A DNA stretch of 64,000 nucleotides, from the NCBI GenBank assembly GCA_022059125.1, contig JAEUWY010000002.1, positions 3,596,001-3,660,000 of the forward strand. The letters run 5' to 3'. The stretch's first letter is position 1. Every line of letters begins with the position of its first letter. Positions 39,265 through 64,000 of the stretch are shown in pieces. The notes under the pieces are model-generated. The model did not search any database, was not told the origin of the DNA, and worked only from the letters and a program-made list of their open reading frames with translations. The stretch comes from Corynespora cassiicola (taxonomy: Eukaryota; Ascomycota; Dothideomycetes; Pleosporales; Corynesporascaceae). A program made the translations under genes and the position numbers.

Positions 39265-39668
39265 TTATGGCTTCTGGGTCAGTTCTTCTTTCACCAAAAC
39301 CCACTGGTTACCCTCCATCCTGGTGTAAATCTCAATCTCCCGTGGTTTGATCCACATAGGCTCGGTCTTCTCGAGATATGGCTTGTAGTATTCTTTCTTC
39401 AATTGGACCTGTGACTAATGGGCATATGGCATCCCTTACGAGCGAACACACTTACATTTATCATCCAATCTTTTGATGCATTCCAGTTTTCCACAAATTT
39501 AAATGTCCCGGGCTCACCATCCATCTGATAGACTTCGAAAAAGATGCACTCGGGCTCCGAGGTCACAGCGTCCCACGCCGGCTTCAGAGCCTCGATAAAC
39601 GCCGGCACATTCTCGGGTGCAACGGTGATTTTGACGTGCAGGGAGTAGGAGGGACCGGTGTATACCAT
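39265..39668 (-). CDS. antibiotic biosynthesis monooxygenase (ABM) fold protein
   Basis: Exons 39668-39456 and 39408-39265 are joined over a 47-nt intron (GTAAGT...CAG) and encode 118 aa. The dimeric alpha/beta-barrel pattern is clear: YSLHVKITVAPENVPAFIEAL, then EPECIFFEVYQMDGEPGTFKFVENW, then the C-terminal helix and IKPREIEIY. Members of this family include cofactor-free monooxygenases and small-molecule-binding proteins. Without splicing, the frame loses its last 47 residues. It probably belongs with the neighbouring aminotransferase, but this is inference from position. Confidence 0.82.
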
Positions 39669-42511: not shown

Positions 42512-42810
42512 AGTGGTGGTACCGATACCATTAGTAATGCAGTAATAGAATAATGACTTACTGATTTGTCTATCTGCTGCTATACATGTGAAACCTATAG
42601 GATCAAAGCGACTAACCGAAGGGCTGGCACCATGATATGATTTTCACTTGTTTAACTTGACTGCATCGCACCTCGTGAGATTACACAAGTATAGTTTCGA
42701 ACCTATTCATTGTTTCTACATTCTTGAGAGTGATGTTAAGAATAATCTTCTAATAAAGATGAAAATATAATGGCATTAAAGACTAAGCTCAGCAATTTGG
42801 TGGATCCCCA
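42512..42810. other. intergenic between convergent genes
   Basis: AT-rich 299 bp carrying the 3' UTRs and terminators of the galactanase and receptor genes. Confidence 0.5.
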
Positions 42811-44341: not shown

Positions 44342-45529
44342 TGCTCAATCGAAGCCGCGCAAACCGAATCGAAAGAAAGCAGGGTGCCGCTCGAAAATAT
44401 GCATTTTGAATATTTCATCTCCGAGTCGCCACGCCGGTTAAATTGTTCCCCTCTGCTTCGAACAGCAGTATAGGGTGGATGCAAGCGGAAGGCTGCGGTC
44501 CCCTAACAGGAGGTGATTCCTGAAACGGGACGTCGCTGACGAATAGGGCTTCGGTTGTATGATGGAGGGTTGCCGTTCTATCCAAGAACCATTCTGGAGC
44601 CGATTCAATCCTAGGGCCCTCACAAGGCCTCGGGCGAACATGCATCAAGACGTCTAGGAAGCGGTCGAGACACGTTGTGCCTGACAGCTGGAGTCCGATA
44701 GCGTCGGCAATCCATCAGAACGTAGAATTTTCACATGCAGTCCTGTCACATAGCCGGCTCAACGAACTTGCCGTTCGAAAGCCTAGGTCCAATCGAGGAT
44801 CGCGGGTATGGAGCCGTCGTCTAGAGCCGGAGCACTAGCTGTTCCTGTCTAGACGGGGGCAAGCGAGCGACATGTCGCTATGCTGGGCAGAAGTATAGAT
44901 GGTAAGGAAAGTTGAGCGGCACAGCATTAATAGGTGGCTGAAACGGTTCGGTAGTCTGACCATGTGAGGCCAGAATCCTTCCGACAGGCCCGGCGCCGCG
45001 TGCCTGACGTCGCCCCTGGACCCATTTTGATATTGAAATGCTGAGCGCCCCACCATAAAAAGCAAGAATTTTTCGCGCAACACCGTGGCGTCTTTTGTCG
45101 TGGGGTTGACGATTGTATGCGCCGGTGTAGACAGATCGTCGTGCGGGTAGACGGAGCGTGGCGATCATCGCTCTATCCCGCCGGCGAACCACCGAGGAGT
45201 ACCGTAGAGTATGAAACCTCAGGTACAAGACTACTGTATGCCGGCATGGCCCCTGGTTTTCCTCTTTTGCGCAAGCCCCAAGCCCAGGCCCCATTACAGT
45301 TGTTTGTAGAAAGACGTCCGTGTTCGACCATGTGGACAATAGTCAGGGTCTGCTCCGAACTTCCTAACTTGGTCGCGATCGTCCGTGGCGAGGGCCGGAA
45401 CACTAAGTTAGTTCTCCTTTTCGTCTACAAAGTTGACTTGGGAGTATATATCTTGACAGGACGTTTCTGCTGTGCTTCGATGTGACTGCTTGCATTCGCC
45501 TCTTGAAACGTTCTTCTAGGCGGTCGACA
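44342..45529. other. divergent promoter, receptor / flavin oxidase
   Basis: 1.2 kb between divergent genes. Small frames overlap on both strands without motifs; no gene is supported. Confidence 0.45.
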
Positions 45530-47349
45530 ATGGCAATGAAGCTCCTTGTGGCTCTCTCTCTTTTGGCCGTACAGGCGCACGCGAGGCTTGGTGAGAGGAG
45601 CACTTGCTACTGCTTCCCGGGGGACAAGTGCTGGCCTGCATCCCCAGCCTGGGCAAGCCTCAACAGCACCGTCGGGGGTCGCCTTATTGCCACTGTTCCT
45701 ATCGGATCCCCATGTCACGACCCCAACTACGATGCTGCAGCGTGCTCTGCACTGCAGAGCCAATGGGGAGCACCAGAACTCCAGTAAGTGGAGAAACGAA
45801 GGAGTGGGGCAGTTCAAGTGCTGATTTGTCGAAACAGTCTGGCCTCGTCGTCGTCGGTCATGCAGGCCTACTTTGCGAACCAGAGTTGTGACCCATTCAC
45901 CGCCCAAGAGCAGCCATGCCTGTTGGGAAACTACGTCAATTACGCGGTAAATGCATCCTCGAGTGCAGATGTTGTGGCCGCCATCAACTTTGCACGCAAC
46001 AGGAACATTCGCTTCGTCATTCGCAACACTGGTCATGAGTATGTGTTCACTATAACCCCGGTCTGCCAAGCATGCAACCACAGCTATACTGACTATATTC
46101 CTGCAGCTTCCTAGGGAGGTCTACGGGCGCTGGTTCTCTTGCAGTCTGGACGCGACACCTGAAAGGGTTCCAAGTCTCTGATTGGTCCGACTCATTTTAC
46201 CAGGGCAAAGCAGTCAAGATGGGCGCAGGAATCTTGGGTTACGAAGCCGTAACAGCTGCCGCCGCCGAGGGACTTGTAGTGATCACCGGAACGTGCCCAA
46301 CGGTCGGCGCTGCGGGTGGTTACATCCAGGGCGGTGGCCATTCTGCTCTCAGCACAAACTTCGGTTTGGGTGCCGATCAGACTCTTGAGTTCGAAGTGGC
46401 CACTGCAGCTGGAAAGATTGTCAAGGCCTCCAGGACACAGAACTCTGACCTCTACTGGGCCTTGAGCGGAGGTGGAGGTGGAACATATGCCACCGTCCTT
46501 TCAGTCACCGTTCGAGCATACCCAGATGCCAAGGTCGGCGCGGCGACGCTTCAATTGGCCGCTGCGGGAACTACACCCGACAAGTTTTACGAGGCTATCG
46601 GGAAATTCCATGCCATGGTGCCGAACATTACCGACAGCGGAACTTCGATGGCCTTTGTCTTCAACTCGCAAATCTTCTCCATCAGCCCAATCACCGCCTT
46701 CAACCAGACGTCTGAGCAGGTCAAGGCGCTCCTAGCACCCTTCATCACGGTTTTGACCGAGTTGGCCATTCCCCATGCGGTGACCTACTCCGACTCTGCC
46801 TCGTATTATGAGCACTACGACAAGTACATGGGACCTCTTCCCTACGGCCACATCGAGGCGGCAGCATACCAATTCGGCAGCCGCTTGATTCCCCGCAGTG
46901 TCTTGGAGAACGACAACGATGCTCTCCAGGTGGCACTGCGCAATGTCACCGAAAACGGAGTCCTTGCAGTTTCTGTCTCCTTGAACGTCACTCGTCAATC
47001 CAACAGGCCCAATGCCGTTCTTCCAGCGTGGCGAAATGCTGCTATTCACATGCAGTTGACTACGGCCTGGGACTCGACTGCCCCATGGGCCGAAATGGTC
47101 GCCGACCAGATGCGCATGACGACCGAGTTCGTTCCTCAGATTGAAGCCGTGACCCCTGGAAGTGGAACCTATGTGAACGAGGCCGATTTCCGCACGCCGA
47201 ACTGGAAAGAGAAGTTCTTTGGCGCAAACTATGCCAAGCTAGCTTCCATCAAGAAAAAGTGGGATCCCACGTCAATGTTCTATGGAACCAAGCTAGCGGG
47301 AAGTGATGTGTGGAATGTAGCTAATGATGGAAGGATGTGCAAGGTGTAG
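45530..47349 (+). CDS. secreted FAD-linked oxidoreductase (BBE type)
   Basis: Exons 45530-45783, 45838-46038 and 46107-47349 (introns 54 and 68 nt) encode 565 aa. The signal peptide is MAMKLLVALSLLAVQAHARL. The PP-loop FAD domain shows [30 protein letters not shown], where the His after the second splice is the expected site of 8-alpha flavin attachment, and VITGTCPTVGAAGGYIQGGGHS, whose Cys fits the second attachment site of berberine-bridge enzymes. The C-terminal BBE segment (FGANYAKLASIKKKWDPTSMFYG) is complete. It oxidises a small molecule or carbohydrate with O2, outside the cell or in the secretory pathway. The next ATG two codons on is an alternative start. Confidence 0.9.
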
Positions 47350-47554
47350 AAAATACCTGTAAATCATGTAAAATACGGTCTCCTGTCGACCATGTAGACA
47401 GGCTAATGAAAACAAGTGAATATTTCAGATAAGGACCCAATGGAACTCGGTGATATGACTCATTTTGTGCAAGCCTCCTAATTTCTGGTTGGGATGGAGT
47501 GCGATCTCTAGCTTCCTAGACAAAATAAACTCTAATCTACGCTCAATTCGTCAA

Positions 47555-49953
47555 TCAATAATATACTTCCCCCACTTTGGGCTTTTCCACAGGTCGTGAG
47601 GACAAGAAGCAGTGTCTCTTTCCGCCTACGAGACTTCCTTCTACCACGCCCCATTGAACTTGACCTAAGTGCGGGTCCACCTCATTAGAGTCAGGGTGAC
47701 ATAAGGCGCTGATGAAAAGACTGCAGGAAAATACGGGCGGCACCGTTGGGCGGACCTTGCGATGCCCAATCCATCCAACACCAATGACTAGACCTAACCC
47801 AACGCCATAAAAGACCATGAGGCTCGAAAGCGATGCACCACATCCAGACATTGAATCTTGACCTTTACGAGTCCCCTCATGATCGAAGGCGTCGAAACGA
47901 ACAAGGAAAAAGGTCTATGATAGCAGCCAATGCAAGATCCCGCTAATGGTCATGAGAGGAATGGCCCATTTGTATGGCAGCTGCAAGAAGTACGTACTGC
48001 GCTGTTCACCACGACGTTTTGTGACCCTAAGTCCTTTGCGCGAAGACCCGAACGCATTCCATTCATTTGCAGATGCCATCAAGGTGCACATGGTGTTCAG
48101 GTTCAGATAACAGAATGAGAGTAGGACCTGGGGCATGTTGGCCAGCCAGGCAGAGAAGAGCATTCCATCGGCTGTTCCTCTAATGTTGCCAAGCTGGAGA
48201 ATGTTATCGGATGCGCTTCCCCATGCCCAAGCATTCACGTAGTCGCTAGCGAAAAGTGGGAAAGCCCCGACAATGATGGCAAGTAGGAGACCCCTGTACT
48301 TGGTTAGTAAAAGCACATGTAGACATATTATAGTACTTACGATACGATGGCTGGGCTGCCTTTGTCGATCTTTATCCAAAAGTTGAATTGCTGCAACCGA
48401 GGAAGCCACGCGTGTCTTTCATATTCTGATTCCCCTTCCTCGGATTCAACTTCTAGTGTGGCAAACAACGGTTGGTTACTTCTTTCCCATTTCTCGTTGC
48501 CTCTCATCAAGAGGCAATCTTCTGCAGTTGTTGAATCGGGTCTTTCCAGAAATGATGCTGCCGCATCTCCCAACGTAACGATGTATTCAGAACGGTCCTT
48601 CAATAGTACAAAGACCATGATGAGAAGCTTGAAAAAGTTGAACAGTGTTACTGCTATCATAAAATATAGACTGATCTGGATGTGCGAACGGTGTGTGTTT
48701 CTGGTTGTGAACCCGTTGATAACTCGCAGGGAGGTCGGGGTCGAGGGCCTAGGGGCACTGGAATTTGAATAAATAGACTCTTTAAATCCACGGTATGGTA
48801 TCATATCTGAAGATGGATGAGAGAGGTGCTTTCCCGTGATGTTCGTGAATAATGCCCCGGGGAGGTAGTGCGTCATCGAGAATGTTCCAATGTTTTCTGT
48901 GGTTCCAAACGCAACATGATCAACCGCCAGAAACAGATCGCCATACCGAGAGACATGCTTCGATGCATAATGTTGCCTCCATTCTGAGTTACTGAGGTTG
49001 ATATAAGTATTCAAATTTCTGTTCCGGGAAGAATTCGTGAAGTGCATCCCCTCATATTCGTCAGACCAGACGTTGATGGTTGTAATACGATACTCCTTGA
49101 TGGCGATGATTTTGAAAATAGAAGCATTGTAACTAGATTTATTCAGCATTCCAGTCCAAGCTCAGACTCTATGTCTCTTACAATAGATGCAGCGGCACTG
49201 AGGAAAGTGCTAACAATACGCATAATGTAGCACGCTTCCGAGATATAAGTCTCAAGTTACGGAGACTAAGAACTCCTACATCAAGCCAATCTCCCATTCT
49301 ATGAGCTCTGTCAATCTCCGAGCGCTTAGGGGAGCTCAAAACCTGCATAGTATAATTACTACTGGCCAGCAACACTGTGCTGAGGGCATTGATGAAGATA
49401 TGAAAGACGGTGTTCCATCGCTCAATGCTTTCTTCATCGCCCTCCATCAAGTCGGCCATCCCTGCCTGATCATATCCATTGGGAAATCGAAATGCACCAG
49501 CTACCAAAAGACTAATGTTACAGCAGAGGACAAATGCGGATGCATAGCAACCAAATAGAACGCCCATACGCCAACCGTAGTATCTGCTTCTCTGTAGCCG
49601 GCGATTAAGCTTAGAAGTCATTAATTTCGCAAAATTGCTCGTCTTTTCCCAGGTACTCCCGAATGATCTGTTGTCTCCTCTCATTTTTGAAGAGGATGGC
49701 AAGGTTTCAACAGACGTGGGCCTTGGGTTGTCAGATATATGACGTCAGAATAATTTTGGTGGGCGTAAAAGCGATGTAGAACGAACCGGAGAGCCACGTT
49801 TTCGAAATCATTTTCCCCTGTTGATAAATCTATAGACGTACGATCCATTTTTTGCCGAGTATCAGTCTCGGAGGCTGGTCTAAATGATGTGGGCGTCCCG
49901 ATACGCCTCATCTCAATAACATCATTTTCTTGTGCGATGCTCCATGTAGACAT
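47555..49953 (-). pseudogene. DUF6536 membrane protein gene with in-frame TAG
   Basis: Exons 49953-49787, 49721-49182, 49132-48341 and 48293-47555 (introns 65, 49 and 47 nt) give one frame of 745 sense codons interrupted by a single TAG at 47917-47915. The N-terminus is hydrophilic. The first helices follow (YYGWRMGVLFGCYASAF), then the family motif SSPKRSEIDRAHRMGDWLDVGV and ALSSVPLHLFYNASIF, and further membrane segments. After TAG the same frame continues TFFLVRFDAFDHEGT, a conserved-looking helix pair and the Cys/His motif SALCHPDSNEVDPHLGQVQWG that normally ends the family. CAG to TAG is the simplest cause. Translation as it stands gives a 625-aa protein lacking the last helices. The first donor (GTTCGT) is weak, so exon 1 is less certain. 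Confidence 0.65.
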
Positions 49954-50406
49954 TTTCTATCTCTCATAGATAATGGATATGGCTTGCTTGTTAGAAAGGT
50001 ACGTGAGATCGACTTGAAAGTTGAGAAGTCAAAGTAAAAATAATGAATGCTCAACTTGGGCACAAGGCTGAAGCTGATCAGTGAAGACTCGTGGCTGTGT
50101 AAGCAGCCAACATCGGAATCCTATGATCCAGTCACACAAAGACTTACAAGATCCCCCCTATCATAAACAAGAAGAAGATTAGGCTGAGAATCAATAATGC
50201 CGCCATATCATCCGATGTTGACGCCATTATACCCAGGTAGTTAGGTGCCATTGGCCAGAGAGTGCCTACTGTATGTACTCAGCCACCACCAATAAGCTCG
50301 GTTACAGGAGCTCTGCCCACCTCTAAGTTCCGCCTACTTTTAGAAAAATAAGCCACTCTGTAAAAACACGTATTAAGAAAAGCTACTGTTGGGGAAACCC
50401 AACGCG

Positions 50407-50430
50407 CCTGTCGCAGGACCCTGCGACAGG
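50407..50430. repeat. perfect 11-bp inverted repeat (hairpin)
   Basis: CCTGTCGCAGG and CCTGCGACAGG are separated by AC. The arms are GC-rich inside an AT-rich block, so the element stands out; it could be a transposon terminal remnant or a transcription-stopping hairpin. Confidence 0.75.
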
Positions 50431-50581
50431 CAGGCTTGACTAGCCAAGAGTAAGATAACCCGCTCACTGGCCAAAGGGCCTAATCTAACAACTACTTCAC
50501 ACTTTTTGATCAAGTAACGTATCGACCAATCGATCCACAACTGATTAGGCCGCATTGCCTACCAGCTACAGAATTTTATTA

Positions 50582-50740
50582 TTTTTAGCTGTGCTAGACT
50601 AAAACTAAAGAGTAAATATAAATAAGAAAAAAGATAGTAATATCATTAGTTAAGTATTCAATTTTAAAAGCGGTAAAAGGTTTTGTTTTTTTAGCTTTAC
50701 TAGACTAAAACTAAATAGTAAGTAGAAGTAATAAGTATAA
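50582..50740. repeat. direct repeat pair, AT-rich
   Basis: A segment starting TTTTAGCTGTGCTAGACTAA at 50582 recurs as TTTTAGCTTTACTAGACTAA at about 50690. Both continue AACTAAA-AGTAA and stay similar over about 45 nt. The differences are mostly transitions, compatible with repeat-induced point mutation. Confidence 0.6.
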
Positions 50741-50975
50741 ATTGTAAAAATGCATTGAGGAAGTTTTATCCTCCATGTGGTTGAGTCGTTGGGCCTGGAA
50801 ACCACGGTTCTGTCACTCAGCAAAAACACTACCATCACAAACATCACCTCCGGAGCTCAAAGTGCTAGTTAATTATTTAATAAAATAAAAACTAAAAAAG
50901 TAATACTTAAGTCTCGATATAGATTTTAGAACTGATCTAACTTTCTGTCAATATTTTTATCACAGCTCAATTAGA

Positions 50976-52845
50976 TCATTTGTGCCTTTGGGAGCAGATA
51001 AGTCGGATATCGGGATGAGTAATCCATTCGTCCGGGTTTACTGCATAGTTGCTGTTTACGTCCTCTGGTCTCAGGGCCACCTGATAATCCTTGACTATAG
51101 CAGCGACAATGCTTCGAAGCATACGATCGGCAACGAATTTTCCCATACATTGACGTGGACCAAAGCCATACCGCCACATGTTGTATCGCACCTATCTCAT
51201 AATCAGCAAGGGGTTCAATAACAAGAAAGGGGAGGAACTATACCTGTGCAGGCTTTAGCCCCAGGAACCGCTCTGGAATGTACTCGTGGCTCTTGTCGCC
51301 CCAGAAGGGATTACGGATATTAAGCCCGTAGGTGTCGACAATGACCATTGTCTAAGGGAGGTCAATATCATATAAAGATAGAAGTAGTCTAGGGTACTTA
51401 CGCGTCCAGGAATCATCCACTCGCCAACTTTTCGGTCCGTCGGAGGAGCCTGAGGAATCGAGAAGGCTGTAACATGGAGTTAGATTGGTATATTGATGAG
51501 ACAAAATTTATCAACTCACGTGCAACAGGCCGCAGACGAGACGATTCGTTGATGCATGCCGCGAGGTAGGTATCTCCGCGGGCAATATATGCATCCCAGG
51601 AGGCATCGTCAGTGCCGCTTTCCCTTTCAATCTCCTCACGAAGTCTGGCTTGATCTTTGGGAGAGGAAGCAATGTAGATAAAGTTCCATGAGATGGCGCC
51701 AGTCGTGACGTCAAGATTTGCGAAGAGGGACTCGTCCAATGTTTGCAACAACTATTGCACGTTAGTTATCGTTTGTTCTCATAGTCTCATGAAGATGTTC
51801 ACCTGGGTTTGGTTAATTTTGCCTTCTTTGCAGTCCTCCCACAGCTTGGTCATGGGTGTCGAAGCTCCTCTAGCCTTGGACTTATCGTATATAGCTTTGT
51901 TAAAGCGTAGCCACTCCTGCTGGAAATCTTCCAGCAATCTGTTTGCCGTGGTGGGAAGGTAACGCGACAGCGAGAAACGAGCCATGCCACCTTTGATTAC
52001 AAAGGTGAAAAGCTTCTGACGAACTGGTGAAATTTTCCTAAGCCATCGGATATCTTCGGGGTCAAGATCACCATACAATAGCGTGGCAACAACAAGGAAA
52101 GGGTAGAAGTTGATATCTTTGGCAGGGTCAAAGATCCCGTTTCGGAAATCTCCGCTGCTGCACAGATGCTCTACGAATTTTCGGGTCTCCTTGCGAATAA
52201 CGGGGGCTTCATTAGAGATAGCCATGTGGGTAAAAGGCACTTCCATCTGGGACCGGAGGCTTTGCCACGACTTGCCGCTGAGCAAGCCCACGCATTGACC
52301 CAATATTTGGCTCATCAAGTACCCCGAGTCATTATTGATGGCTTTGTAGTGCTGGTCAGAGTCTTTGAATATTTCCTTCAGATACTGCGGGTCAGATACC
52401 ACACTGAGTCAAATTAACTTCAGCGCCAAAATTGAGAATAAAGTATACGTACACCTCGGATGTAGATCCGGACCAGATTCTGTATGTAGAGCCGTGTAAT
52501 TTGCGCCATTCTTCGGCATTCTCGCGACCTTCATGGAACTTTGCGACGTCCCCATTGCCATTAGGCCAAATGTAAGGCAGGGATGGCAGACTTTTCGTGC
52601 GGGTTTCATCTTTTATAGGATACGCCCAGTGTAGATACCACTATTTCCTGTGAGTTTACGTTGATACTAATAGATCCGGTGACTTGTCGTACATTTAAAA
52701 TAGCGGATAGTAGTTTTGTAATTGCTGCATTGACAAAAGAGCGAGCTTTGAGCAAAGCCACGGTGACCAAGGTGGTGATACTCAGTCCCAAAGCCAGGTG
52801 ACTGAGTGCCAAAGGGCTGGCACTCACTACGTCATAGAGGAGCAT
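50976..52845 (-). CDS. cytochrome P450 monooxygenase (cluster P450-1)
   Basis: Seven exons: 52845-52693, 52640-52453, 52403-51803, 51751-51520, 51466-51402, 51351-51244 and 51191-50976, encoding 520 aa with introns of 49-54 nt. The N-terminal membrane anchor is ALSHLALGLSITTLVTVALL. The I-helix region is DESLFANLDVTTGAISWNF, ExxR is ESSR (NESSRLRPVAPFSIP), and the heme-binding loop is FGPRQCMGKF with the axial Cys. It is an ER-bound monooxygenase of unknown substrate. It is divergently transcribed from GST-1 across a 530-bp promoter containing TCGGTTACCGA. Confidence 0.9.
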
Positions 52846-53375
52846 TTTCGCTCAATGGAAAAGACAAATCACCAAATCCAAATGTAACAAAGCTACTAAA
52901 AGTAATCCAGTTGGAGGGAAAGAATGTTGTTGATAGCTAGGGGAGGAGAATTGGCATAAGTGTTCCGTACCCTGGCTGGGATGTAATGAACAGTCTAGCC
53001 TATCAAAATACGGTTAGGGACGCTTTTGAATGCGCAATCGGTTACCGAGCCCTCCAATCAGAAAATAGTAAACTAACAATGATGCTGAAGATCCCTGCTG
53101 ATCATATGGCTACAGGCCCATGGCCCCTTAAAAGAAATAGCACTAGAATTATAGAAACCATACTTTCTATTGTAGTTGAACTCTTTATCACGGAATATTT
53201 CAGAGATATCATTTAGTTTAACTGCATTTATTCTGTCAGCGTCTTTTGACGAGTTGTTGACGATTGAAATTTTTATCGGAAGCCGAACCCATCGCGCTGC
53301 AAGACCATAAGAACAATCAATAATCAACTTTATCTAAACATCGCCATCAATCAAAGTTACTCATTCTAGGATAAA
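52846..53375. other. divergent promoter, P450-1 / GST-1
   Basis: 530 bp with no coding frame supported. It carries the cluster palindrome at 53038-53048. Confidence 0.6.
53038..53048. promoter_or_regulatory. TCGGNNNCCGA site 1
   Basis: TCGGTTACCGA lies 193 bp upstream of the P450-1 start and 328 bp upstream of the GST-1 start. It is one of five such sites in this cluster. Confidence 0.75.
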
Positions 53376-54241
53376 ATGGGTTCTACAGAGATGAATTTTC
53401 CTGCTGTCAAGTACGGCGACGTCCCCCATGAGGGAAAGCCAATTCTCTATGTTGTGAAAGGTGCAGTTTCCATCCACGTATCTACTGCTTCTGTTTAACC
53501 GTTTTCTAGCCACAAAAACCTCTTACATAAATTACATGAAGGTTTTGATGTTAGCAGAAGAGCTTGGTATAGACTACGACATTTCGGTGGTTGTCACCAA
53601 AGACGATTGGTACAAGCCCATTCACCCCGAGCGCTATGTACCAACGATCCGTGACCTGGATCCGGAAACAAAGCAGGACATTTACGTGTTTGAGAGTACC
53701 GCTTGTCTTCAGTACCTGGCGGATACATATGATAAAGAAGGACTTTGGCATGGCAAGACCCAGTACGAGAAGGGCAACATCCTTTCATGGATTGCGTACC
53801 AGACTGCCGGACTTGGGTAATACTTTGCCTAGACTACATCTTCATAACTAACATCATATCGTAGCGCAACTTCGAAGTATTGGCTATATTTTTACGCTGT
53901 ACACGAGGAGAAGCTTCCGAAGACAATTGACAAGTATGGATTGTCCCATTCCATGAATGATTGAATGCTGACATGACGCCAATAGGTTGTACGCAAACGT
54001 TTTGAAGCAATGGGATATTTTGGAAAAGCGCCTTTCCGAGCCAGGTCAAACATACATTGCGCTCAAGGACCGCCCAACAGTGGCAGACCTGGCATATCTC
54101 CCCTTCGCGATGCCGTACATGTTTGAGTTCATGCAGGTTAAGATCGAAGACTGGCCCAAGATCAAGGAGTGGTCCGAGCGCATGTTGAGTCGCCCAGCTG
54201 TCCGCAAGATCTTGGACTTTGCTCCTACCATAGGCAATTAG
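53376..54241 (+). CDS. glutathione S-transferase (cluster GST-1)
   Basis: Exons 53376-53460, 53510-53816, 53865-53933 and 53986-54241 (introns 49, 48 and 52 nt) encode 238 aa. The N-terminal thioredoxin fold has TSYINYMKVLMLAEELGIDYD, HPERYVPTIRD and the glutathione-binding VFESTACLQYLADTYD. The C-terminal helical domain is LSWIAYQTAGLGATSKYWLYF and RPTVADLAYLPFAMPYMFEF. It resembles Ure2-like GSTs. It would attach glutathione to an activated intermediate or catalyse a thiol-assisted isomerisation. It is a paralogue of the gene at 59451-60351, with matching intron positions. Confidence 0.9.
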
Positions 54242-54596
54242 ATTATTCATTAGAGTGTTGTTAAATGAAACCAAACCAAAGACCAAATAATGAATCATTT
54301 TCCATGAATGTTGTTGCTACAAGTTTTTGTCGTGAAACACGTTCATGCGGATGCGAGGCGGTCGGCTTTCGAGAATCGCCGTCGGGAGCCGATGAAATGC
54401 CTGCCCTACGCCCGAACAATTGTGCCAAGAAACCGCAAGCCATCATTGCTGCCATTATTGCGATTCTGTATACGTTGTGTACCATTCGATCGCTGCTATC
54501 ATATTTGTAAATCCGCTCTGTCTTTTTACTTTATTCGTTTCTTCCTGCACCATTGTCTGCCATTGAATCCAACACGCTCGTTAAATCCCAAGAACC
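54242..54596. other. intergenic, GST-1 terminator and ABC promoter
   Basis: 355 bp between two plus-strand genes, with no coding frame. It holds the palindrome at 54382-54392. Confidence 0.6.
54382..54392. promoter_or_regulatory. TCGGNNNCCGA site 2
   Basis: TCGGGAGCCGA lies 205 bp upstream of the ABC transporter start codon. Confidence 0.75.
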
Positions 54597-57359
54597 ATGG
54601 GGCCTGTCGCTTTTAGCGCAGTCCTTTGGTCATACCCAGTCTCCTTTGGCTTAGTATCGCTAACAGCAAACTCTTATGAGGCACTGTACAAAACTGAGGA
54701 GCCATCAAGTAAGGCTTCGAATCGCCGACGCATAGCAAGAGCAAACAAATCACTGTTGCTGCTTCATTCAATTCTAGCGGTTCTTCTTGTAAGTTCCCCA
54801 ACATTTTTGAAGTAACCAGATCACTGATGTGTATACCGATAGGCCGTCAATACGTGTCTTGCCGCGTATGGCTCACTAAAGCATGTTCCCGGTCCACTGT
54901 TTGCCAGTGAAGCATACTTGGTGAGACTTCGAAACGCGCATGATGGGTACATTGTCTAACATATCTTATCAAGGGTGCTATCATCTCGATTCTATTGATA
55001 TTTTGCAGCTCACTTCTTCCCGATCCTGACATCCCCTACTCACCAAACTACCCCAATTTCCTAACATGGCTCCTGAGTATCGTGTACGAGGCTACTATTC
55101 TGGCCATGTGTTTTGTCAATGCCAGGTATTCCAAAAACGAAAACCAGAGTCCACTGGTAGTGGCATGTGAGGCACTTGGAGCCGCCCGCCTCGTGATCCT
55201 GGGCGTAATGGTAACTCTTTTCCTGTTCAGCCGGCGTGTAGTCGACGACGCCAGATCAGACAGCGAGTCTGAGTCCCTTCTCAGTCCAGAGCAGAGCGTG
55301 CATTATGGGTCTACCGCGGCAGCTGCCTCTCAAAGCTCGAAAGATGCCCAGACCGTGTCGGCCTTTGACTATCTGGCCGGATTCCGTGACCTGATTCCAT
55401 ACCTTTGGTAAATTTTCTATCACAACCCTCTATGACAGATGAAAGCTGACATAAAAGGCCGTCCGATGATCATATCCTGCAAGCATGGGCTGTTTTCTGT
55501 TTTGGGCTGTTGGTTGCCCAGCGAGTCATCAACATCATGGTGCCACACCAGCTTGGTATCGTGGTAGATCATTTGGGAAAAGGCAAATTGCCTCTCAAAG
55601 ACATCATGTTGTATGTGGTGTACCGCAGCTTGCAAGGACAGCAGGGTGTCTTAGGTTCCCTACGCGCTATCCTGTGGATTCCCATCAGTCAGTCAGCGTA
55701 CCGCCGGCTTACTGTCGCTGCATTCGAACACGTTATGAAGCTTTCTTTAGATTTCCACTTAAGCAAGCGTATCGGAGAAGTAATCAGCGCACTCAGCAAA
55801 GGCAGCGCGATAAACACCTTCCTAGATGGACTTATCTTCCAACTCTTTCCTATGGTGTTTGACCTCTTCGTCGCGGCCGTCTACTTCTTCGTGTTTCTGG
55901 ATGCATTCTACGCCATTATCGTCGTGGCTGTTATGTGGTTTTACCTGTTCATCACAATCTACATGGCCAAATATCGCGGCAGAGCAAGACGTGAAGCTGC
56001 CACCAGGGATCGTGAAATGGAGGCTGCAAAGTAGGCACACTGGTTTTTTCCCCCCTCTCTGGGATTACGAGACTAACTGGATACACAGAACTGATGCCAT
56101 CATGTCCTATGAGACTGTTCATCACAACAGTGCTTTGCCCCTTGAACTTTCCAAGTTTCAGCGCCTGGTAAAATACTTTCAGGAAGCGGAGTACTCTGTG
56201 TTCTTCTCGTTGAACACGCTCAACGCTGTGCAGAACTTCATCTTCGTCATTGGTGTCCTCCTTACCTGTCTCCTTGCGGCGTTCCAGATCTCCGAGGGAA
56301 TGCACAAGGTTGCCATGTTTGTCACAGTGTTGACGTACCTGGCTCAGTTGCAGGCTCCTTTGAATTTCTTCGGCAGCTTCTACACTCAAGTACAGAACAA
56401 CATGGTGGATGCCGAGCGCATGCTGGCCCTCGTGAGTAAACCCAAGATCTTGACGCTTATGACATGCAAGCTGACGAAGCCACCTCATCTTAGTACAAAA
56501 TCACACCCCACGTGAAGGACAGTCCCAAGGCTAAGCCTATGAATACATGCCAGGGCAAGATCTCATTCAACAACATCGACTTTGCGTATGACAAGAGGAA
56601 GCCGACCCTCTCGAAAGTCAGCTTCCAAGTCCAACCCGGCACCACCACAGCCATCGTAGGCGAAAGCGGCAGCGGCAAATCCACCGTCCTCAAGCTCCTC
56701 TTCCGATTCTACGAGGTCGACGGAGGCAGCATCCAGATCGACGGTGTTGACGTCCGTGACGTCACCATGGCGACGCTGCGCACACACTTCAGCGTTGTGC
56801 CCCAGGACACCATCCTCTTCAACGAGACCATCCTGTACAACGTCAGGTACTCGAATCCCGATGCTACGCTGGAGGAAGTGCAGGCTGCGTGCAAGGTTGC
56901 CAGCATCCACGACAAGATCATGAGTTTCCCGGATGGATACGACAGCAATGTTGGGGAGAGGGGTCTTCGGCTGTCGGGCGGCGAGAAGCAACGCATTGCC
57001 ATCGCGCGTGCGGTGCTGAAGCGGCCTCAGATTATGCTTTTGGATGAGGCGACTGCGTCGTTGGATTCGCAGACGGAGCGCCTCATTCAGGATGCGCTGA
57101 AGACGGCGTGTGAGGGGCGGACTACTATTGCTATTGCGTAAGTCGACGTTTTCTTGGTGGTGCTCAATATGATAAATTGCTGACTTGGAGATTTAGCCAC
57201 CGTTTGTCGACGATTACCGATGCGGATCAGATTATCGTCATGCACCAGGGTTGCATTGTAGAGAGGGGAACGCACGAGCAGCTGCTGGCGCTCAAGGGGA
57301 GATATAAGTCCATGTGGGAGAAACAGACGAAGGCTGCTCCGGCCGCGACACCGACCTAG
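54597..57359 (+). CDS. ABC transporter, ABCB half-size HMT1-like
   Basis: Seven exons: 54597-54788, 54843-54920, 54974-55407, 55458-56030, 56089-56431, 56494-57137 and 57197-57359, encoding 808 aa. An extra N-terminal membrane domain of about five helices precedes the six-helix exporter domain ([42 protein letters not shown]). The single ATPase domain shows Walker [11 protein letters not shown]-loop VVPQDTILF, signature LSGGEKQR, Walker B IMLLDEAT and H-loop AHRLSTI. This TMD0-plus-half-transporter layout is that of Hmt1, which moves glutathione or phytochelatin conjugates into the vacuole. Next to two GSTs, it may carry a glutathione adduct made by this pathway. Confidence 0.92.
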
Positions 57360-57768
57360 GGTCCAAGAACAACTTTTCCTTTGTATAGTTTCAGGTAATT
57401 TTGGTAGAATATGGGATTAAGGTTTTTGTAGTGATAGTGTAGGCTCTTATGCAATGTATAAGCTGAGTGTGGTTATGGTTCATCTAGAAGTCAGTATTTG
57501 TTTCATTGTGCAGCCCAATTGATGCAGCTTTTGTACATTAGGCAATATGATAAGCTCCAAGTAGTTCGATACGAATTCATTGCGTTCCCTTTACCTTTGT
57601 ACTAGTGGTTTTATGTAAGTCTCTACATGTTGAAATCATTGTAATGCCGCAGGGTCTTGAACTCCGGTAGTGGGCCGAAATGTGTCCCCGACCAAACGGT
57701 CCAATGTAAATTTATATGAAGATGACTACTCAATAAACCATCCAAATGACTACAGCAAATATACCCTT
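57360..57768. other. intergenic between convergent ABC and MFS genes
   Basis: 409 bp, AT-rich 3' flanks of convergent genes; no coding frame supported. Confidence 0.55.
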
Positions 57769-59176
57769 CTAAACACACCCGACTACAAACACGCCAGCCG
57801 ATGTGGCGGCGAGAATGGCAGCAACATACAAGACGCTGCCCCCCGGATGGGTACTTTGCCAGCCACCGAGCAGCGGGGCCGAAAGAAGGCTACCTACGCC
57901 TTCTGCAATTGAAAGGGCGGCAACAGCCAGAGCATCATGTTGGCGGCGCTGCACGAGATGTGCCTTGACGAAAGACGGCGTGGCCAGGCCCAAGGCTGCC
58001 ACAGCCACGACGGGGAACAGAGCCCACGCCACAGGGACCGTCGCAAGGGCACATAGAGCGCCGACAAGCACAGCAAGTGAAACTAGCACGGCTCCAGAAT
58101 TGCGTGCAGGCCGCGATGCAACGGCGGCGACGACGAGGTACAATGAAGAGGTACCCGCCGCGACTGATAGGATGAGCCCGTTCTGCGCGGGCGTGAAGCC
58201 AAACTGCAGCGTCGCATGCACCATCAGCGCAGGGAACATGTACGATATGGCCGCATTATACAACAACATGGCACCGCCATGCGCGGCGAGAACTCTATCG
58301 CTGAAAAGGCGCATGGCTGGACGAGCAAAGGCCGCGAGTGGCGAGTCGCTACCATGACCACCTGCACCCTCGCTGCCGCTGTGCACGTGACCGACGGCAC
58401 TCCCATCATCTAACCGCCCTACCACCACCAGGTAGACGGCCGCCATGGCAAAAATGACAAGCGCGACAGCAAAGGAGACGCGGAAATCGGCCAGCAGAGC
58501 CGCGAGCGCCGGGCTGAGGGCCATGCCCGCCATGTACAAAGCGAGCGAAGCCGACATGAGCCGTCCCACGCCGCCTTGATCGCTGCTCCGCGCATACAAG
58601 GCATTCAACACCATGTGCAACGTATTATCCGTCGCCAGACCCTCGAGCACGCGCGCACCAAGCGCGAGCCCCACGCTCTTGCGCATCACTGTCACACCGT
58701 CAGCCTATGCCACCCATCACGATCCTCAGGAGCCTTCGTTTCATCCCCGCCCTCCCCGACATCCCCATTGGGACAGCCACACACGGAGATAGCTCACCTC
58801 CGGCCCCAAGCACCACCACGCTCCCGGCCCGCAGGCCCACCCATACCGCTAGCCCCGTCTGCGTGGGCAGCCGCTCGTACACGCTCACGGCCAGGAGGCC
58901 GCACACGTTTGCGATTGTGGTTGCTGCCGCTACGGCGGAGGCGTAGGCGGCCTTCTCCGATGAGGCGCATTGCGAGGCGTCTTTGCAGAGGATGTGCGCG
59001 TAGGCATAGACGGTTGAGGCGGCCGTTGCGGCCATGGCGCACGAGGCGAGGAAGGAGATGGGCATGGCCTTGTAGCCAGCGGGTATGCCCTTTGAACGCC
59101 ATAGGGGGGTGTCGGATGGCGGTTCGGGTTCGGGTTCTCGGTGGAGGAGGGAGGCTGTTTCGGCGGGGTGGGGCAT
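57769..59176 (-). CDS. MFS transporter (cluster exporter)
   Basis: Exons 59176-58798 and 58688-57769 (intron 109 nt, GTGAGC...CAG) encode 432 aa with about 12 hydrophobic segments. Helix 1 is MPISFLASCAMAATAASTVYAYA and the splice joins VVLGAG to VMRKSVGLALGARVLEGLATD. A central hydrophilic loop is rich in Gly, Ser and His (GHVHSGSEGAGGHG). The family resembles multidrug or vesicular-amine-like MFS proteins. I choose the ATG at 59176 because the in-frame ATG at 59395 would place the cluster palindrome (59297-59307) inside the coding sequence and add a hydrophilic tail without conserved character. GC content is higher than in neighbouring genes. Confidence 0.82.
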
Positions 59177-59296
59177 GTTTGTCCTTCTTTCGTTCTTTGT
59201 CTCTTTTGGCGGAGACGGTTTAGGTTTGCCAGTCGATTCGGGGTGGCTGGGCTTGATTTGGCTGAGGGACTTCTTGTAGCGGGGGTGAGTATGAGG

Positions 59297-59307
59297 TCGG
59301 TGACCGA
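59297..59307. promoter_or_regulatory. TCGGNNNCCGA site 3
   Basis: TCGGTGACCGA lies 121 bp upstream of the chosen MFS start codon and 144 bp beyond the GST-2 stop. Confidence 0.75.
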
Positions 59308-59450
59308 CTTTATTGGCTCTTCTTTTGGCTTCATCACTGCATTCTACTCGTATCTGGAAGATGAGATAGCTCAGGGCCATTATGACGGCGGTCATGCAAA
59401 TTCAAGCTATCTATCGAACCCATCTACTTTTTGTCGTCCTGTCTTCCATT

Positions 59451-60351
59451 TCAGTGTCCAATGCTGGGCGCCGTTGACATGACCTTTTGCACTGCAGGCC
59501 GAGACAACATCAATTCACCCCATCGCTTTATGTTTGGCCAGTTGTTGATGTCCACGCCAAAGAAGCCAAACATCCATGGCATCGAAAAGGGAAAATACGA
59601 GATATCTGCCAAAGTCGGCCGATCAGGAAGGGCTATGTACGTTTGCCCTGGGAGGGCCAATCGCGCCTCCAACATATCCCAGGCTTTCAGTGTGTTGGCA
59701 TGTAGCCTACTTAAAGTAAGCTAGAGTCAACAAATTGAGATTATTAGAAAGACATACTTTGCGCATGTTTTTGGCATAGGTTCAGCATTCTGCCTAGTGG
59801 GATATCCGCGCAGGAAATAAAGCCAATATTTGGCAGTGGCGCTGTACGCATTAGCATCAGAAGATCATCACTTTCGTATACTGATCAACCTTACCCGAGA
59901 CCAGCCGTTTGGAAGGCCGTCCATGAAAGGACTTGTGCCTTTTCCCATGCCGTTCGGCCCGTCCATTCCCCATTGCCATCGTATTTGGCCGTCAGGTACT
60001 GCAAACATGCCGTTCCTTCGAAAACAATGATTTTTTCGCCCGTGACATCATCCTTGTCTTTTAGAGATGGAACCATACGCTCCGGATGAACTGCGTAGAA
60101 CCACTCATCTCGTGTGTCGATGACAGATAAAAGGTACGGAAAGTTGAGTTCCTCTGCAAGGATCAGGGGCTTGATGTAGTTGATGTACGATGTTTGGTCC
60201 GCTAGCCATCTTTGTGTTAGCCCTGCTTCTCATCCCCTCGACTGTGGGGTCCCGCACCTTTGATAACGTATAGGATCGTTCTGCCGTCGTGTTCCACGTC
60301 GCCAATGATGACCTCTCCATTTGGCCGTGAAGCTACCGTCGAGTCTGCCAT
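59451..60351 (-). CDS. glutathione S-transferase (cluster GST-2)
   Basis: Exons 60351-60258, 60201-59895, 59841-59758 and 59706-59451 (introns 56, 53 and 51 nt) encode 246 aa. Motifs parallel GST-1: TSYINYIKPLILAEELNFPY, HPERMVPSLKD, VFEGTACLQYLTAKYD, LSWTAFQTAGLGATAKYWLYF, RPTLADISYFPFSMPWMFGF. In the glutathione-binding motif the Ser of GST-1 (ESTA) is Gly (EGTA), which may alter thiol contact. Exon 2 (307 nt) and exon 4 (256 nt) have exactly the lengths of the corresponding GST-1 exons, so the two genes are duplicates. The third acceptor (AAGTAG) is chosen over an earlier CTAG to keep the frame. Confidence 0.88.
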
Positions 60352-60769
60352 TTTCGTGATCTTTGTGCCAATTTGAGATCTTTTCTCTCAAACAGAAGAA
60401 CGGTCAAGACGCCCACCTCATAGTTATGTATCTGGAAAGACATTTGAGGCGAGTTGAGCTCGGTCGCCGACCATTGAGTACATGTCGAAGACGACGCTTC
60501 TGGTATTCCATTTAAAAAAATTGGGGGCTGAAGCCGTAAACATATCTGAGTTGTGGCTATTAACGATTGACGGACTGAGGATGAAAAGTCATCTATAGAT
60601 GTTTGTCTACTTGGAATCGCGCTTTAAAGTCCTGTGTAACCCATCGACCAACGACAAATTAGAACTAGAACTTGGAAAAAAAAACATCTTCCATTTTCCA
60701 CTACCCTACCCAATCAGAGAAACACCAAAACGATATCACGAACCTCATCAAACCTCATACCCTACCCAA
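60352..60769. other. intergenic, GST-2 promoter and P450-2 terminator
   Basis: 418 bp, no coding frame. It contains the palindrome at 60460-60470. Confidence 0.6.
60460..60470. promoter_or_regulatory. TCGGNNNCCGA site 4
   Basis: TCGGTCGCCGA lies 109 bp upstream of the GST-2 start codon. Confidence 0.75.
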
Positions 60770-62742
60770 TTACTGCTTTCGCCGCCTAAAAGAAACATAT
60801 GCGTCAATACTCGGCATGATTTGGCCTCCAATTGGCCAATCAACCGGCTTTCCAGTGCGTTTAGGAGTGAAGCGCATCTCGTAGTCGACCAGAAACTTTG
60901 CAAAGACAATTTTTGAAGTTTCTGTCGCTAAAAATCTACCGGGGCAGGTCTGAGTACCATAGCCAAATCTGAAATTATTGGTCAGCTGAAATATATGCAA
61001 AGTCTTGAGTTTTCTTACGGAAGATATGTGCGGCTTTGTGTTACCGACTTGACCTTGACCGAGTTTGTTTCGGCGTCGTAGAAACGGTAGCCATCAAACT
61101 CGAGCGGGCGCTCGTAGTACTCTTCATCTCTCTGGATAGCTAGAGTCGGGAAGCCAATGAGTGTTCCTGCTTTAACGACCTCGCCATTTGACAGAGGAAT
61201 ATCGACATCAACCTTTCGCTGCAAAGTGACTTGAGGATTCTGTTAGCATTCCATAGCAAGCCCCAATGTGACCCCAAAAATTGACTTACGTGCAGTGGGC
61301 GGGCTCAACCTCAACGTTTCCCTCAAAAAGCTGTCCAACTTGGGCATCCTCGCCGCAGCCTCCTTGTTCCAACCGCCACACTCCCTCACAGCCGTCACAA
61401 TCTCCTCTCTGAGCGGCTCCAAATACTCCTGATGCCCCAGCACCGAAAGAATCAACTGACACACCACCACCGAAAACAACCCCGCAGCTGCAAATGTCAA
61501 GAACAACTCTTGATTCACGATCCTTGCATACGACGCTTCAGTATCATCCTTTGCACTCTTCAAAAGCCCATCAAGCATTGCAAAGTTCTCGCTCGAGTAG
61601 TCGGCCGCCTGCCTCTTGCGAAGCTCGGGGTACACAAACTTGCGCACTTCGCGCTGGTGGGCGCGGATCTGACGGCCACCCTTGGACACCCAGAAGAAGG
61701 GAACGCGCATGAAGGCAGGCATGGCGAAGAGGGGCGCGTTCCACGATGTCACTTCTTCTGTATAGCCGCGCGCGTGGTGGATGTAGTCGGGGTTGGCGGC
61801 AAGGGCGGGGCCGACCATTACGGCGGCGGTTACGCGGTGGATGATGTCGAGGGTGGCGTCCCAGAGCATGACGGTTCTCCAGCCTAATTCTGCGTTAGAT
61901 ATATTTCTCATTTATTTCTTTCCAAGGCGTGGTTCTATTTGGGTGGTTGTGCGCTTACCCCGTGTGTTTTTTGGTGGCTCGAGGCGTTCGGCGATTGCGA
62001 GGTCGGTTTGCTCCGCAATGTAGTTGGTCATGCTCGCTGTGGACATTGTCAGAATTCTCTTCAAGTAAGACTTAATTGCTGCTCTTCTTTACTCACGGAG
62101 ACTGAAGTTCAACTGCGACTTTACTGCTTTCACATAGTCGCGTTGACATACCATGTCGCCGACGTGGAGGTTCCACATGAAATGCTATGCATATGTCAAC
62201 TCCAAATCCTCCAACAACGATGAAAGTCTCACCTCGTCAACTACTTTGAGAAATGACAGCTTTTGTAGCGGCTGATTCTTGATGTCGTCGAAGAATTTCG
62301 GAGGTAAAATATGAATGAGCTCGTCGTTGATCCATGTTGCCCAAATCTTGTCTTGCTTCGTATACTGTAATCACGCTTAGTTCTTGAAGCCATCCTTCCA
62401 ATTTCCATCCTGAGAATTATTTCGACACCCTTCAAAAAGTTCCAAGCTTACCCTTTTGTAGCCATCGAAAACAACATTGTTCGGATCGAGATTGAACTTG
62501 GTCATCATCGTCCGGCGCAGCCACCATCCACAATCCCCTAGGACCACATGCTTGTTGCCTCTCCGCTCGAGAAAGTCGTAAAACGGCCCCAACCCAATAA
62601 AAAAGACTGCGATTATTCCCAAGAGGGTGACATAGGGACGCCAAGCCTCTGAGAATCCAAGAAAGTTGCCATTGGTCGGAGCATGGTGGAGAGGAAGTGT
62701 GTCCGCTTGTGTGCTATTGTCGGACCATGAAGTAGATTCCAT
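60770..62742 (-). CDS. cytochrome P450 monooxygenase (cluster P450-2)
   Basis: Seven exons: 62742-62452, 62364-62233, 62184-62097, 62036-61959, 61883-61290, 61229-61019 and 60968-60770, encoding 530 aa. The N-terminal anchor is VTLLGIIAVFFIGLGPFYDF. Conserved parts are QELFLTFAAAGLFSVVV (I-helix region), ExxR in RETLRLSPPTALTLQRKV, PLEFDGYRFYDAET, and the heme loop FGYGTQTCPGRFLA. The pattern recalls the fungal ent-kaurene-oxidase-like P450 class used in secondary metabolism. Intron 5 has its branch site TGCTAAC directly before a CAG that is skipped; the AAG 10 nt further is the only acceptor that keeps the frame. Confidence 0.9.
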
Positions 62743-63160
62743 GGTTCTTTCCTTGACATACGTATCGGGCTCACTAGAAGGATCAATTTCAGAATTGTGG
62801 TGCGCAACTTATGGTGCATTATATGCAGGAGCTAACTTGATTGGCATATCCTGGATCGGGGACCGAGTTACGGCCGACCCAGATTGGCAGGTCTGCCTCT
62901 TAATACCAGAGCCTTACACCGCCCCGATACAGTAAAAGCGCTTCATGCGAGACTATCAGTTTTTTGAAACTCATTCGCAAGCATACTACTTGCGAGAAAC
63001 ACAGGGTTCACAGTTATAAACACGCGATACTATTCGTAAGTTCTTATCCACTCGGATACCGACAAACTTTATACATTACATATACACTTCTGGTTTGTCA
63101 AAAAAAAATACTACTCTCTCAAAAAATCAATTACGAACCTTTTCGTAGAGTTACTCTAAG
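62743..63160. other. divergent promoter, P450-2 / CmcJ-like oxygenase
   Basis: 418 bp, no coding frame supported. It carries the palindrome at 62856-62866 and a nearby CGGCCG. Confidence 0.6.
62856..62866. promoter_or_regulatory. TCGGNNNCCGA site 5
   Basis: TCGGGGACCGA lies 114 bp upstream of the P450-2 start and 295 bp upstream of the oxygenase start. Confidence 0.75.
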
Positions 63161-64000
63161 ATGACCGCCCTCCCCAAGTACGACGCAGAGATGCTCTACA
63201 TCGAGCCCTGGCAAGACAAGAAGGAAGCCCCATACTATCGCACGAACCCCGACCCCGGCTTCGAGGTCAAAAACTACGACTGGCTACCATACAAAGTAGG
63301 CGTCGAAGACTGCCGGGCCTGCAAGGATAATTTTACTTTGGATGATCACGCGTTCGCCTTCGTGGACGATGCTGATGGCGGCCGGCCAGAGGTACTGCAA
63401 GCCATCCGCGACATAAACACCGAGAAAATCGAAAAGGAGTACTATCCTGCGGTTGAAGCACTGGTCAAGCGTAAGACGGGTGCCGACAAGGTTATCATTT
63501 TCAATCATTCGATTCGCAAGCGTGATCCGGCGGAGGGCTTTTTCGGTAGCCCCGGGAAGCAACAGCCAGGTAGAACGGTATGCATGTCGCGCTTGAATAT
63601 TTAATAATGCTCTCTGACTATGTTCTAGGTGCATTGCGACCAGTACGATACAGTTTGCCAGAGCCGACAACGTCGATGAGGCTAATGCCACCACAGGACT
63701 CCCAAAGGCGCTATCCGCCGAGCCCGCCAATACGCCGGTGAGGAAGCAGAAGAACTTCTTAAAGGCCGCTTTCGCATTATCAAGTAAGGATGCATGATTC
63801 AAAGGAAGGCGAAGCGACAAGGCGCTAACAAAATACCAGCGTCTGGAGACCAATCAACGGCCCTGTCGAGGACTGGCCGCTTGCGACAATGGACGGCAAA
63901 TCTTTGAGCCAGGATAACCTACACGCTACAGATCTCTGGAAGAATCAATGGGAGGAGCTCGGATCTACATACAATATAAGTCATGGGGAAGGCCAGAAGT
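63161..64000 (+). CDS. CmcJ/GA4-desaturase-like oxygenase (partial)
   Basis: Exons 63161-63577, 63629-63642 (14 nt), 63697-63783 and 63840 to beyond the window; introns 51, 54 and 56 nt. The N-terminus reads EPWQDKKEAPYYRTNPDPGFEVKNYDW. The 2-oxoglutarate/Fe(II)-type iron motif HCDQ is made by the 14-nt exon and is followed by TPKGAIRRARQYAGEEAEEL and FRIINVWRPINGPVEDWPLA. This is the CmcJ / GA4 desaturase family, which includes the AsaB oxygenase of aspergillic acid synthesis. Such enzymes hydroxylate or desaturate small molecules. The C-terminal iron ligand is outside the window. Known homologues often have HVDQ; here Val is replaced by Cys. Confidence 0.87.

What the first reader, a model, noticed from the sequence alone, without database searches (positions are those of the whole stretch)
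53038..62866. One perfect TCGGNNNCCGA palindrome in each of five promoters serving seven neighbouring genes
Seen: TCGGTTACCGA (53038), TCGGGAGCCGA (54382), TCGGTGACCGA (59297), TCGGTCGCCGA (60460) and TCGGGGACCGA (62856). Each lies in the intergenic promoter of cluster genes (P450-1/GST-1, ABC, MFS, GST-2, P450-2/CmcJ-like), 100-330 bp from the starts; the central three bases all differ. A specified 8-base palindrome is expected about once per 65 kb by chance, so five within 10 kb, all in promoters, is far from random. Known: AflR-type Zn2Cys6 dimers bind TCG-N5-CGA. Inference: a pathway-specific regulator, probably encoded to the right of the window, controls all seven genes. The sites also define the left edge of the cluster, as none was noticed upstream of the DUF6536 gene.
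Basis: partly seen in the sequence, partly recalled or inferred. Interest (0 to 1): 0.9.

Follow-up and report, generated by a model that had tools for sequence, protein, structure and literature searches.

The report
Shared switch site of toxin-type cluster
A short mirror-image DNA site sits just in front of nearly every gene of a fungal gene cluster for a gliotoxin-like sulfur compound, most likely as the docking site of the cluster's own regulator; this kind of site was already predicted for such clusters, and the useful extra is a second cluster in the same genome with the same site but different neighbouring letters.

Summary
Past the window, 20 TCGGN3CCGA sites fill 51.5 kb (0.75 expected). 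By my gene models 19 of 20 are intergenic, and 22 of 26 genes have one 67-256 bp before the start. The genome appears to be Corynespora cassiicola. The genes form an epipolythiodioxopiperazine (ETP) set: two NRPS genes, GliT-type reductase, GSTs, M19 dipeptidase, aminotransferase, methyltransferases, P450s. A Zn2Cys6 gene lies 13 kb right of the window, as predicted, but without a site in its own promoter. The motif is the one already proposed for SirZ and GliZ: a new member of a known kind. The looser AflR-type TCG-N5-CGA is at most weakly enriched. New here: a second ETP-like cluster on the same contig has 8 such sites in 45 kb and a different Zn2Cys6 regulator. Flanks differ (outward A in 8 of 8 sites against 3 of 20), hinting at two insulated regulons with one core; that comparison was made after seeing the sites. 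Binding and co-regulation are inferred; nothing was assayed.

The parts
53038..53048 (.). TCGGTTACCGA, P450-1/GST-1 divergent promoter
   Evidence: 195 bp from P450-1 start, 328 bp from GST-1 start
53276..53286 (.). TCGGAAGCCGA, second site of the P450-1/GST-1 promoter, not in the finding
   Evidence: 90 bp from GST-1 start
54382..54392 (.). TCGGGAGCCGA, ABC promoter; a one-mismatch copy lies at 54362
   Evidence: 204 bp
59297..59307 (.). TCGGTGACCGA, MFS-1 promoter
   Evidence: 120 bp
60460..60470 (.). TCGGTCGCCGA, GST-2 promoter
   Evidence: 109 bp
62856..62866 (.). TCGGGGACCGA, P450-2/CmcJ-1 divergent promoter
   Evidence: 114 bp from P450-2 start
63052..63062 (.). TCGGATACCGA, second site of the P450-2/CmcJ-1 promoter, not in the finding
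   Evidence: 98 bp from CmcJ-1 start
51238..52845 (-). P450-1, leftmost gene with a site; the 3' end of the model is uncertain
   Evidence: Pfam p450 6.4e-29; model
53376..54241 (+). GST-1 (GliG type)
   Evidence: Pfam GST_N_2 2.6e-10
54597..57359 (+). ABC transporter
   Evidence: Pfam ABC_tran 6.6e-33, ABC_membrane 2e-27
57769..59176 (-). MFS-1 transporter
   Evidence: Pfam MFS_1 3.8e-9
59451..60351 (-). GST-2 (GliG type)
   Evidence: Pfam GST_N_2 2.6e-5, barely over its cut-off
60770..62742 (-). P450-2
   Evidence: Pfam p450 7e-26 on the inner exons
63161..64000 (+). CmcJ-1, CmcJ/NvfI-family oxidoreductase, runs past the window end
   Evidence: NCBIfam NF041278 6.6e-56

Best explanation
The palindromes are binding sites of a pathway-specific Zn2Cys6 activator for an ETP biosynthetic cluster. 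The window holds the left seventh-gene edge of that cluster; it runs on to extended coordinate about 106,000 (window coordinates continued past 64,000; contig C2 to about 3,702,000). The most likely regulator is TF1 (77,010-78,506, minus strand), which would bind TCGG-N3-CCGA as a dimer, one CGG half-site per subunit, and switch the cluster on as a unit, with sites 67-256 bp upstream of 22 of 26 genes. Shown: the sites, their density, their placement, the gene content, the Zn2Cys6 gene. Inferred: that TF1 binds them, that the genes are co-regulated, that the product is an ETP.
For: 20 sites in 53,038-104,518 against 0.754 expected at the genome rate (Poisson 7e-22); none in 39,560-53,038, 104,519-124,000 or the next 10 kb. 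Spacing is specific: in 51-106 kb N3 has 20, each other spacing from N0 to N15 has 0-3; among all 256 four-letter N3 palindromes the next best has 4. 19 of 20 sites are intergenic although only 23 percent of the span is (binomial 1.4e-11). ETP gene set: GliT-type reductase (4ntc GliT, 7e-90), a second one (7br0, 5e-107), two GSTs, aminotransferase, AIG2-like, M19 dipeptidase, methyltransferases, NRPS with A-T-C-A-T-C and a T-C-A one. TF1 has Zn_clus 5.8e-9. The same motif is proposed for SirZ in eight sir promoters (PMC8191991, passage) and for GliZ (PMC4006717, passages), where the regulator's own gene lacks it, as here. A second ETP-like cluster in this genome shows the same excess.
Against: No binding or expression data. 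TF1 (no perfect site nearer than 905 bp), CmcJ-2, TrxR-1 and the dipeptidase lack a perfect upstream site; one-mismatch copies lie near the last three. One site (101,268) is inside the dipeptidase gene. No GliZ or SirZ sequence was at hand, so orthology of TF1 to them was not tested. A paralogue of TF1's C-terminal part on contig C6 has 0 sites in 60 kb. In Dichotomomyces, GliZ shifted only three of seven gli promoters tested (PMC7022936, passages). The gene models come from my own simple script, with several starts set by hand.
Confidence: 0.82

Rival explanations
1. The sites are bound by another regulator, for example the Zn2Cys6 protein of the second ETP-like cluster (TFb, C2:43,465) or a global one, and TF1 acts elsewhere.
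For: Both clusters carry the same core, and both have a Zn2Cys6 gene. TF1's own promoter lacks a site.
Against: Spacer and flank letters differ between the clusters; TF1 lies inside the dense stretch; regulators without a site of their own are the rule reported for gliZ (passages).
Confidence: 0.13
2. The excess is chance, base composition or copied promoter DNA.
For: GC-rich palindromes are common in such DNA; the reversed control pattern has 846 genome-wide matches.
Against: 0 of 100 shuffles reach the window count; other spacings and other palindromes are not enriched; the flanks of the 20 sites differ from each other beyond the core.
Confidence: 0.01
3. AflR-type regulation through the looser TCG-N5-CGA.
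For: 27 matches in the window against a mean of 16.84 in shuffles, 1 of 100 reaching 27; without the strict sites 26 lie in the cluster's 54,760 bases and 18 in the other 69,240; one-mismatch sites before CmcJ-2/TrxR-1 and the dipeptidase.
Against: Most of the excess is the strict form: 20 in the cluster, 2 outside. In 53,038-63,062 the other members number 5 against 2.5 expected (P 0.10).
Confidence: 0.04

Closest known systems
SirZ regulon of the sirodesmin cluster, Leptosphaeria maculans
   Same: TCGGNNNCCGA in promoters of an ETP cluster with an in-cluster Zn2Cys6 regulator; both fungi are Dothideomycetes (class recalled)
   Different: Eight sir genes carry it (PMC8191991, passage); here 22 of 26 genes; sequence kinship of TF1 to SirZ untested
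GliZ regulon of the gliotoxin cluster, Aspergillus fumigatus
   Same: Same palindrome, reported in every gli promoter but gliZ and gliA (PMC4006717, passages); regulator's own promoter empty
   Different: More genes here, two GliT-type reductases, two NRPS genes, two CmcJ-family genes; 16 of 20 spacers fit NNA
AflR and TCG-N5-CGR sites of aflatoxin clusters (recalled)
   Same: Zn2Cys6 regulator, palindrome with the same outer letters
   Different: The strict inner G and C are needed for most of the excess here
Viriditoxin (vdt) cluster motif, Aspergillus section Fumigati
   Same: TCGGNNNCCGA also found upstream of vdt genes (PMC10512231, passage)
   Different: Not an ETP cluster: the core is not unique to ETP regulation

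Membership tests
SirZ/GliZ-type ETP regulon | TCGGN3CCGA in most promoters of the cluster | tested here: met
   22 of 26 modelled genes, 19 of 20 sites intergenic; density
SirZ/GliZ-type ETP regulon | Zn2Cys6 regulator gene inside the cluster | tested here: met
   TF1, Zn_clus 36.4 bits against a cut-off of 21
SirZ/GliZ-type ETP regulon | Regulator's own promoter lacks the site | tested here: met
   nearest perfect site 905 bp from the TF1 start, beyond TF2
SirZ/GliZ-type ETP regulon | TF1 is an orthologue of SirZ or GliZ | not tested
   no SirZ or GliZ sequence was returned or 66 under that name
SirZ/GliZ-type ETP regulon | The regulator binds the site and drives the genes | not testable with these tools
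   needs EMSA and a deletion
ETP biosynthetic cluster | GliP-type NRPS, GST, dipeptidase, aminotransferase, P450, GliT-type oxidoreductase | tested here: met
ETP biosynthetic cluster | Third T domain at the end of the GliP-type NRPS (recalled feature) | tested here: not met
   A-T-C-A-T-C; no further T seen by eye in the forward frames of 96,901-97,700; the T-C-A protein begins with a T
AflR-type TCG-N5-CGA regulon | Looser pattern enriched apart from the strict sites | tested here: inconclusive
   26 in 54,760 against 18 in 69,240 bases

The most novel reading that the evidence does not exclude
One genome runs two ETP regulons with the same TCGGN3CCGA core but different outer and spacer letters, each read by its own, differently built Zn2Cys6 protein: cluster A as (G/C)TCGGNNACCGA(C/G), cluster B as TCGGNNNCCGAA. 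A third, TF1-like regulator on contig C4 would use TCGGACTCCGA. The letters around the core would then be the insulation code between paralogous pathways. In cluster A a conserved 167-residue protein without a DNA-binding domain, but with a domain like TF1's C-terminal part, would act as partner of TF1.
Probability: 0.3. Interest if true: 0.62.

Novelty: new member of a known kind. Interest (0 to 1): 0.42.

Why it matters
The sites delimit an ETP cluster of some 26 genes in a crop pathogen from DNA alone, including transporters, a purine-type permease and CmcJ-family oxidoreductases that homology to gli or sir genes would leave out. Two clusters with one core motif in one genome make a natural test of how related Zn2Cys6 proteins avoid each other's targets, an old question for this large family.

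Tried and rejected
Considered and dropped: chance (shuffles, genome count, spacing control); AflR-type looser site as the main element; one site per promoter. A first gene-finder run joined most of the cluster into one gene and was thrown away; one search replaced it. Pfam offered no second domain for TF1 and only sub-threshold hits for TF2. A paper search for AclR/AclT returned knee-ligament papers, so the name AclR for 7br0 is recalled. PMC12881047 held none of the terms asked. The 2008 paper that proposed the motif is not held; I know it only through the passages. Comparing promoters in related species was not possible: no fungal genome collection is offered.

Selection to bear in mind: the second cluster was fetched because GliT-like matches lay there and because three of its sites had already shown. 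The GliT-like match at C5:1,969,437 was not examined for sites. Flank and spacer comparisons were chosen after seeing the sites; the spacer difference alone is not significant (16 of 20 against 3 of 8, P 0.068).
Full report
Coordinates past 64,000 continue the window to the right (window = contig C2 3,596,001-3,660,000; loci L005-L010 follow directly).

THE OBSERVATION. TCGGN3CCGA occurs 9 times in the window: the five listed, 53276 and 63052 in the same stretch, and 2343 and 39550 outside it. Shuffles give 1.09 on average and 0 of 100 reach 9. The genome has 650 in 44,353,003 bases; the pattern read backwards has 846, so the word is not common in itself. The right flank holds 13 more, from 66,799 to 104,508. 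In all, 20 lie in 53,038-104,518 against 0.754 expected (Poisson 7e-22; 7 against 0.147 in 53,038-63,062, 2.6e-10). None lies in 39,560-53,038, in 104,519-124,000, in the 10 kb after that or in the 10 kb left of the window. Two controls: between 51,000 and 106,000 the spacings N0-N15 other than N3 give 0-3 each; of the 256 four-letter palindromes with N3, TCGG has 20, the next best 4, the mean is 0.96.

PLACEMENT. A simple spliced gene finder of my own, with starts partly set by hand, gives 26 genes from P450-1 to an MBOAT gene at 105,997. Intergenic DNA is 12,705 of 54,760 bases, yet 19 of 20 sites are intergenic (binomial 1.4e-11). 22 of 26 genes have a perfect site 67-256 bp upstream of the modelled start (median about 125 bp). 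The four without are TF1 (nearest 905 bp), CmcJ-2, TrxR-1 and the M19 dipeptidase. Copies with one mismatch lie between CmcJ-2 and TrxR-1 (82,412 and 82,428) and 92 bp before the dipeptidase (102,541). One perfect site (101,268) lies inside the dipeptidase gene. The P450-1/GST-1 and P450-2/CmcJ-1 divergent promoters have two sites each, one nearer each gene.

WHAT THE GENES ARE. Right of the window lie two more methyltransferases, a purine/allantoin-type permease, NRPS pieces and a Zn2Cys6 gene, then reductases, a GNAT gene, an AIG2-like gene (GliK type), an aminotransferase (GliI type), a third methyltransferase, an M19 dipeptidase (GliJ type) and an MBOAT gene, P450s and the large NRPS. The fragment of MFS-2 that was scanned stays below the Pfam cut-off. 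TrxR-2 has a CLFC motif and matches GliT, 4ntc, at 7e-90. TrxR-1 has CLVH in its place and matches 7br0, which shows the same CLVH in the alignment, at 5e-107; that 7br0 is the aspirochlorine enzyme AclR is recalled. Both CmcJ-type genes match the NCBIfam CmcJ/NvfI family. This is the ETP gene set. TF1 is 96 percent identical to a Corynespora cassiicola protein and TF2 99 percent, so the genome appears to be that species. [quoted passage not shown] whether it is this cluster I did not test.

THE REGULATOR. TF1 (77,010-78,506, minus) has a Zn2Cys6 domain followed by SRRAGRPRPKR and a cysteine-rich C-terminal part; 18 relatives aligned keep invariant C-x-C and other residues there. Next to it, TF2 (78,730-79,236, minus) has no Zn2Cys6 domain. 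It is conserved in 9 proteins found, among them Plenodomus biglobosus J1614_010417, whose number adjoins that of the TF1 relative J1614_010418. Profile comparison joins TF2 to the C-terminal part of TF1 (probability 89.7, E 1.8e-6, 92 columns, shallow alignments). TF2 has a site 175 bp upstream, TF1 none of its own. That matches gliZ, which lacks the motif in A. fumigatus (PMC4006717, passages) and in five section Fumigati species (PMC10512231, passage).

WHAT IS KNOWN. The motif TCGGNNNCCGA was proposed from ETP clusters of three species and lies before eight sir genes; SirZ binding is called a hypothesis (PMC8191991, passage). The GliZ site is described as proposed but not experimentally proven (PMC4006717, passages), and PMC6923255 gives a near-identical motif (passage). 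In Dichotomomyces cejpii, GliZ shifted three of seven gli promoters (PMC7022936, passages). So the present case is a new member of a known kind, with unusually full coverage. My searches for print on this cluster were (listings; one returned two papers, each naming Corynespora once), which do not exclude other reports.

A FINER MOTIF. Read in the better direction, 16 of 20 sites have A as third spacer letter (TCGGNNACCGA). Genome-wide 234 of 650 sites do (133 + 128 strand hits, 27 counted twice), so 218 of 630 outside (Fisher 5.8e-5).

A SECOND CLUSTER. GliT-like matches led to C2:35,001-80,000. There tblastn finds relatives of P450-1, GST, ABC (55-72 percent by piece), the T-C-A NRPS, AIG2-like, aminotransferase, MBOAT, methyltransferase, MFS and two reductases. 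It has 8 TCGGN3CCGA sites in 45 kb against 0.66 expected (5e-7), every other spacing N0-N15 having 0 or 1. Three of the 8 were already known when I chose the region. Four of the 8 sites lie roughly 110-170 bp from starts of methyltransferase, GST, aminotransferase, NRPS and AIG2-like genes; two lie farther upstream of a P450 and the regulator; one is unassigned; one (73,984) lies within the AIG2-like gene. Its Zn2Cys6 protein has TESRVGKVQGNRKRKR after the zinc cluster, unlike TF1. Outward flanking letters differ: A in 8 of 8 sites against 3 of 20 (Fisher 5e-5; by letters 10 of 16 against 3 of 40). C differs weakly (P 0.035) and the NNA spacer not significantly (3 of 8 against 16 of 20, P 0.068).

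A THIRD LOCUS. A TF1-like gene with both domains lies at C4:179,726-180,916, among what look by eye like terpenoid genes. Four sites lie within 15.7 kb, three of them TCGGACTCCGA, of which the genome has 29 (1.8e-7). Four sites in 15.7 kb would be expected in about 0.27 stretches of the genome, so that part is weak. A gene on C6 with only the C-terminal part has no site in 60 kb.

READING. Best supported: an in-cluster Zn2Cys6 activator reads one site per gene and switches the whole ETP pathway. The core is shared by at least two ETP-like clusters of this genome, so core alone cannot give specificity if both regulators read it; outer and spacer letters are the candidate. That last step is a hypothesis from 28 sites, formed after looking.

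Noticed in passing
extended 78,730-79,236 (L006:4730-5236, minus): TF2, a 167-168-residue protein without a DNA-binding domain, like TF1's C-terminal part, conserved beside TF1 relatives; a possible partner of the regulator.
   Followed up: partly
extended 73,555-76,911 and 90,797-97,140: Two NRPS genes: one reads T-C-A, the large one A-T-C-A-T-C without the third T that I recall for GliP; the missing T might be supplied by the other protein.
   Followed up: partly
extended 82,511-83,546: Second GliT-like reductase with CLVH instead of CxxC, nearest to 7br0; may point to an unusual disulfide.
   Followed up: partly
G000 C2:35,001-80,000 (L025, L026, L028, L029, L027): Second ETP-like cluster near the contig end with its own regulator and 8 sites; a transposase-like frame (by eye) lies at 57,250.
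   Followed up: partly
G000 C4:175,942-191,634 (L013-L015): Three TCGGACTCCGA and one TCGGCTACCGA around a TF1-like gene in a probable terpenoid cluster.
   Followed up: partly
window 45,530-47,349: A three-exon gene that looks by eye like an FAD-linked oxidase, left of the cluster and without a site.
   Followed up: no
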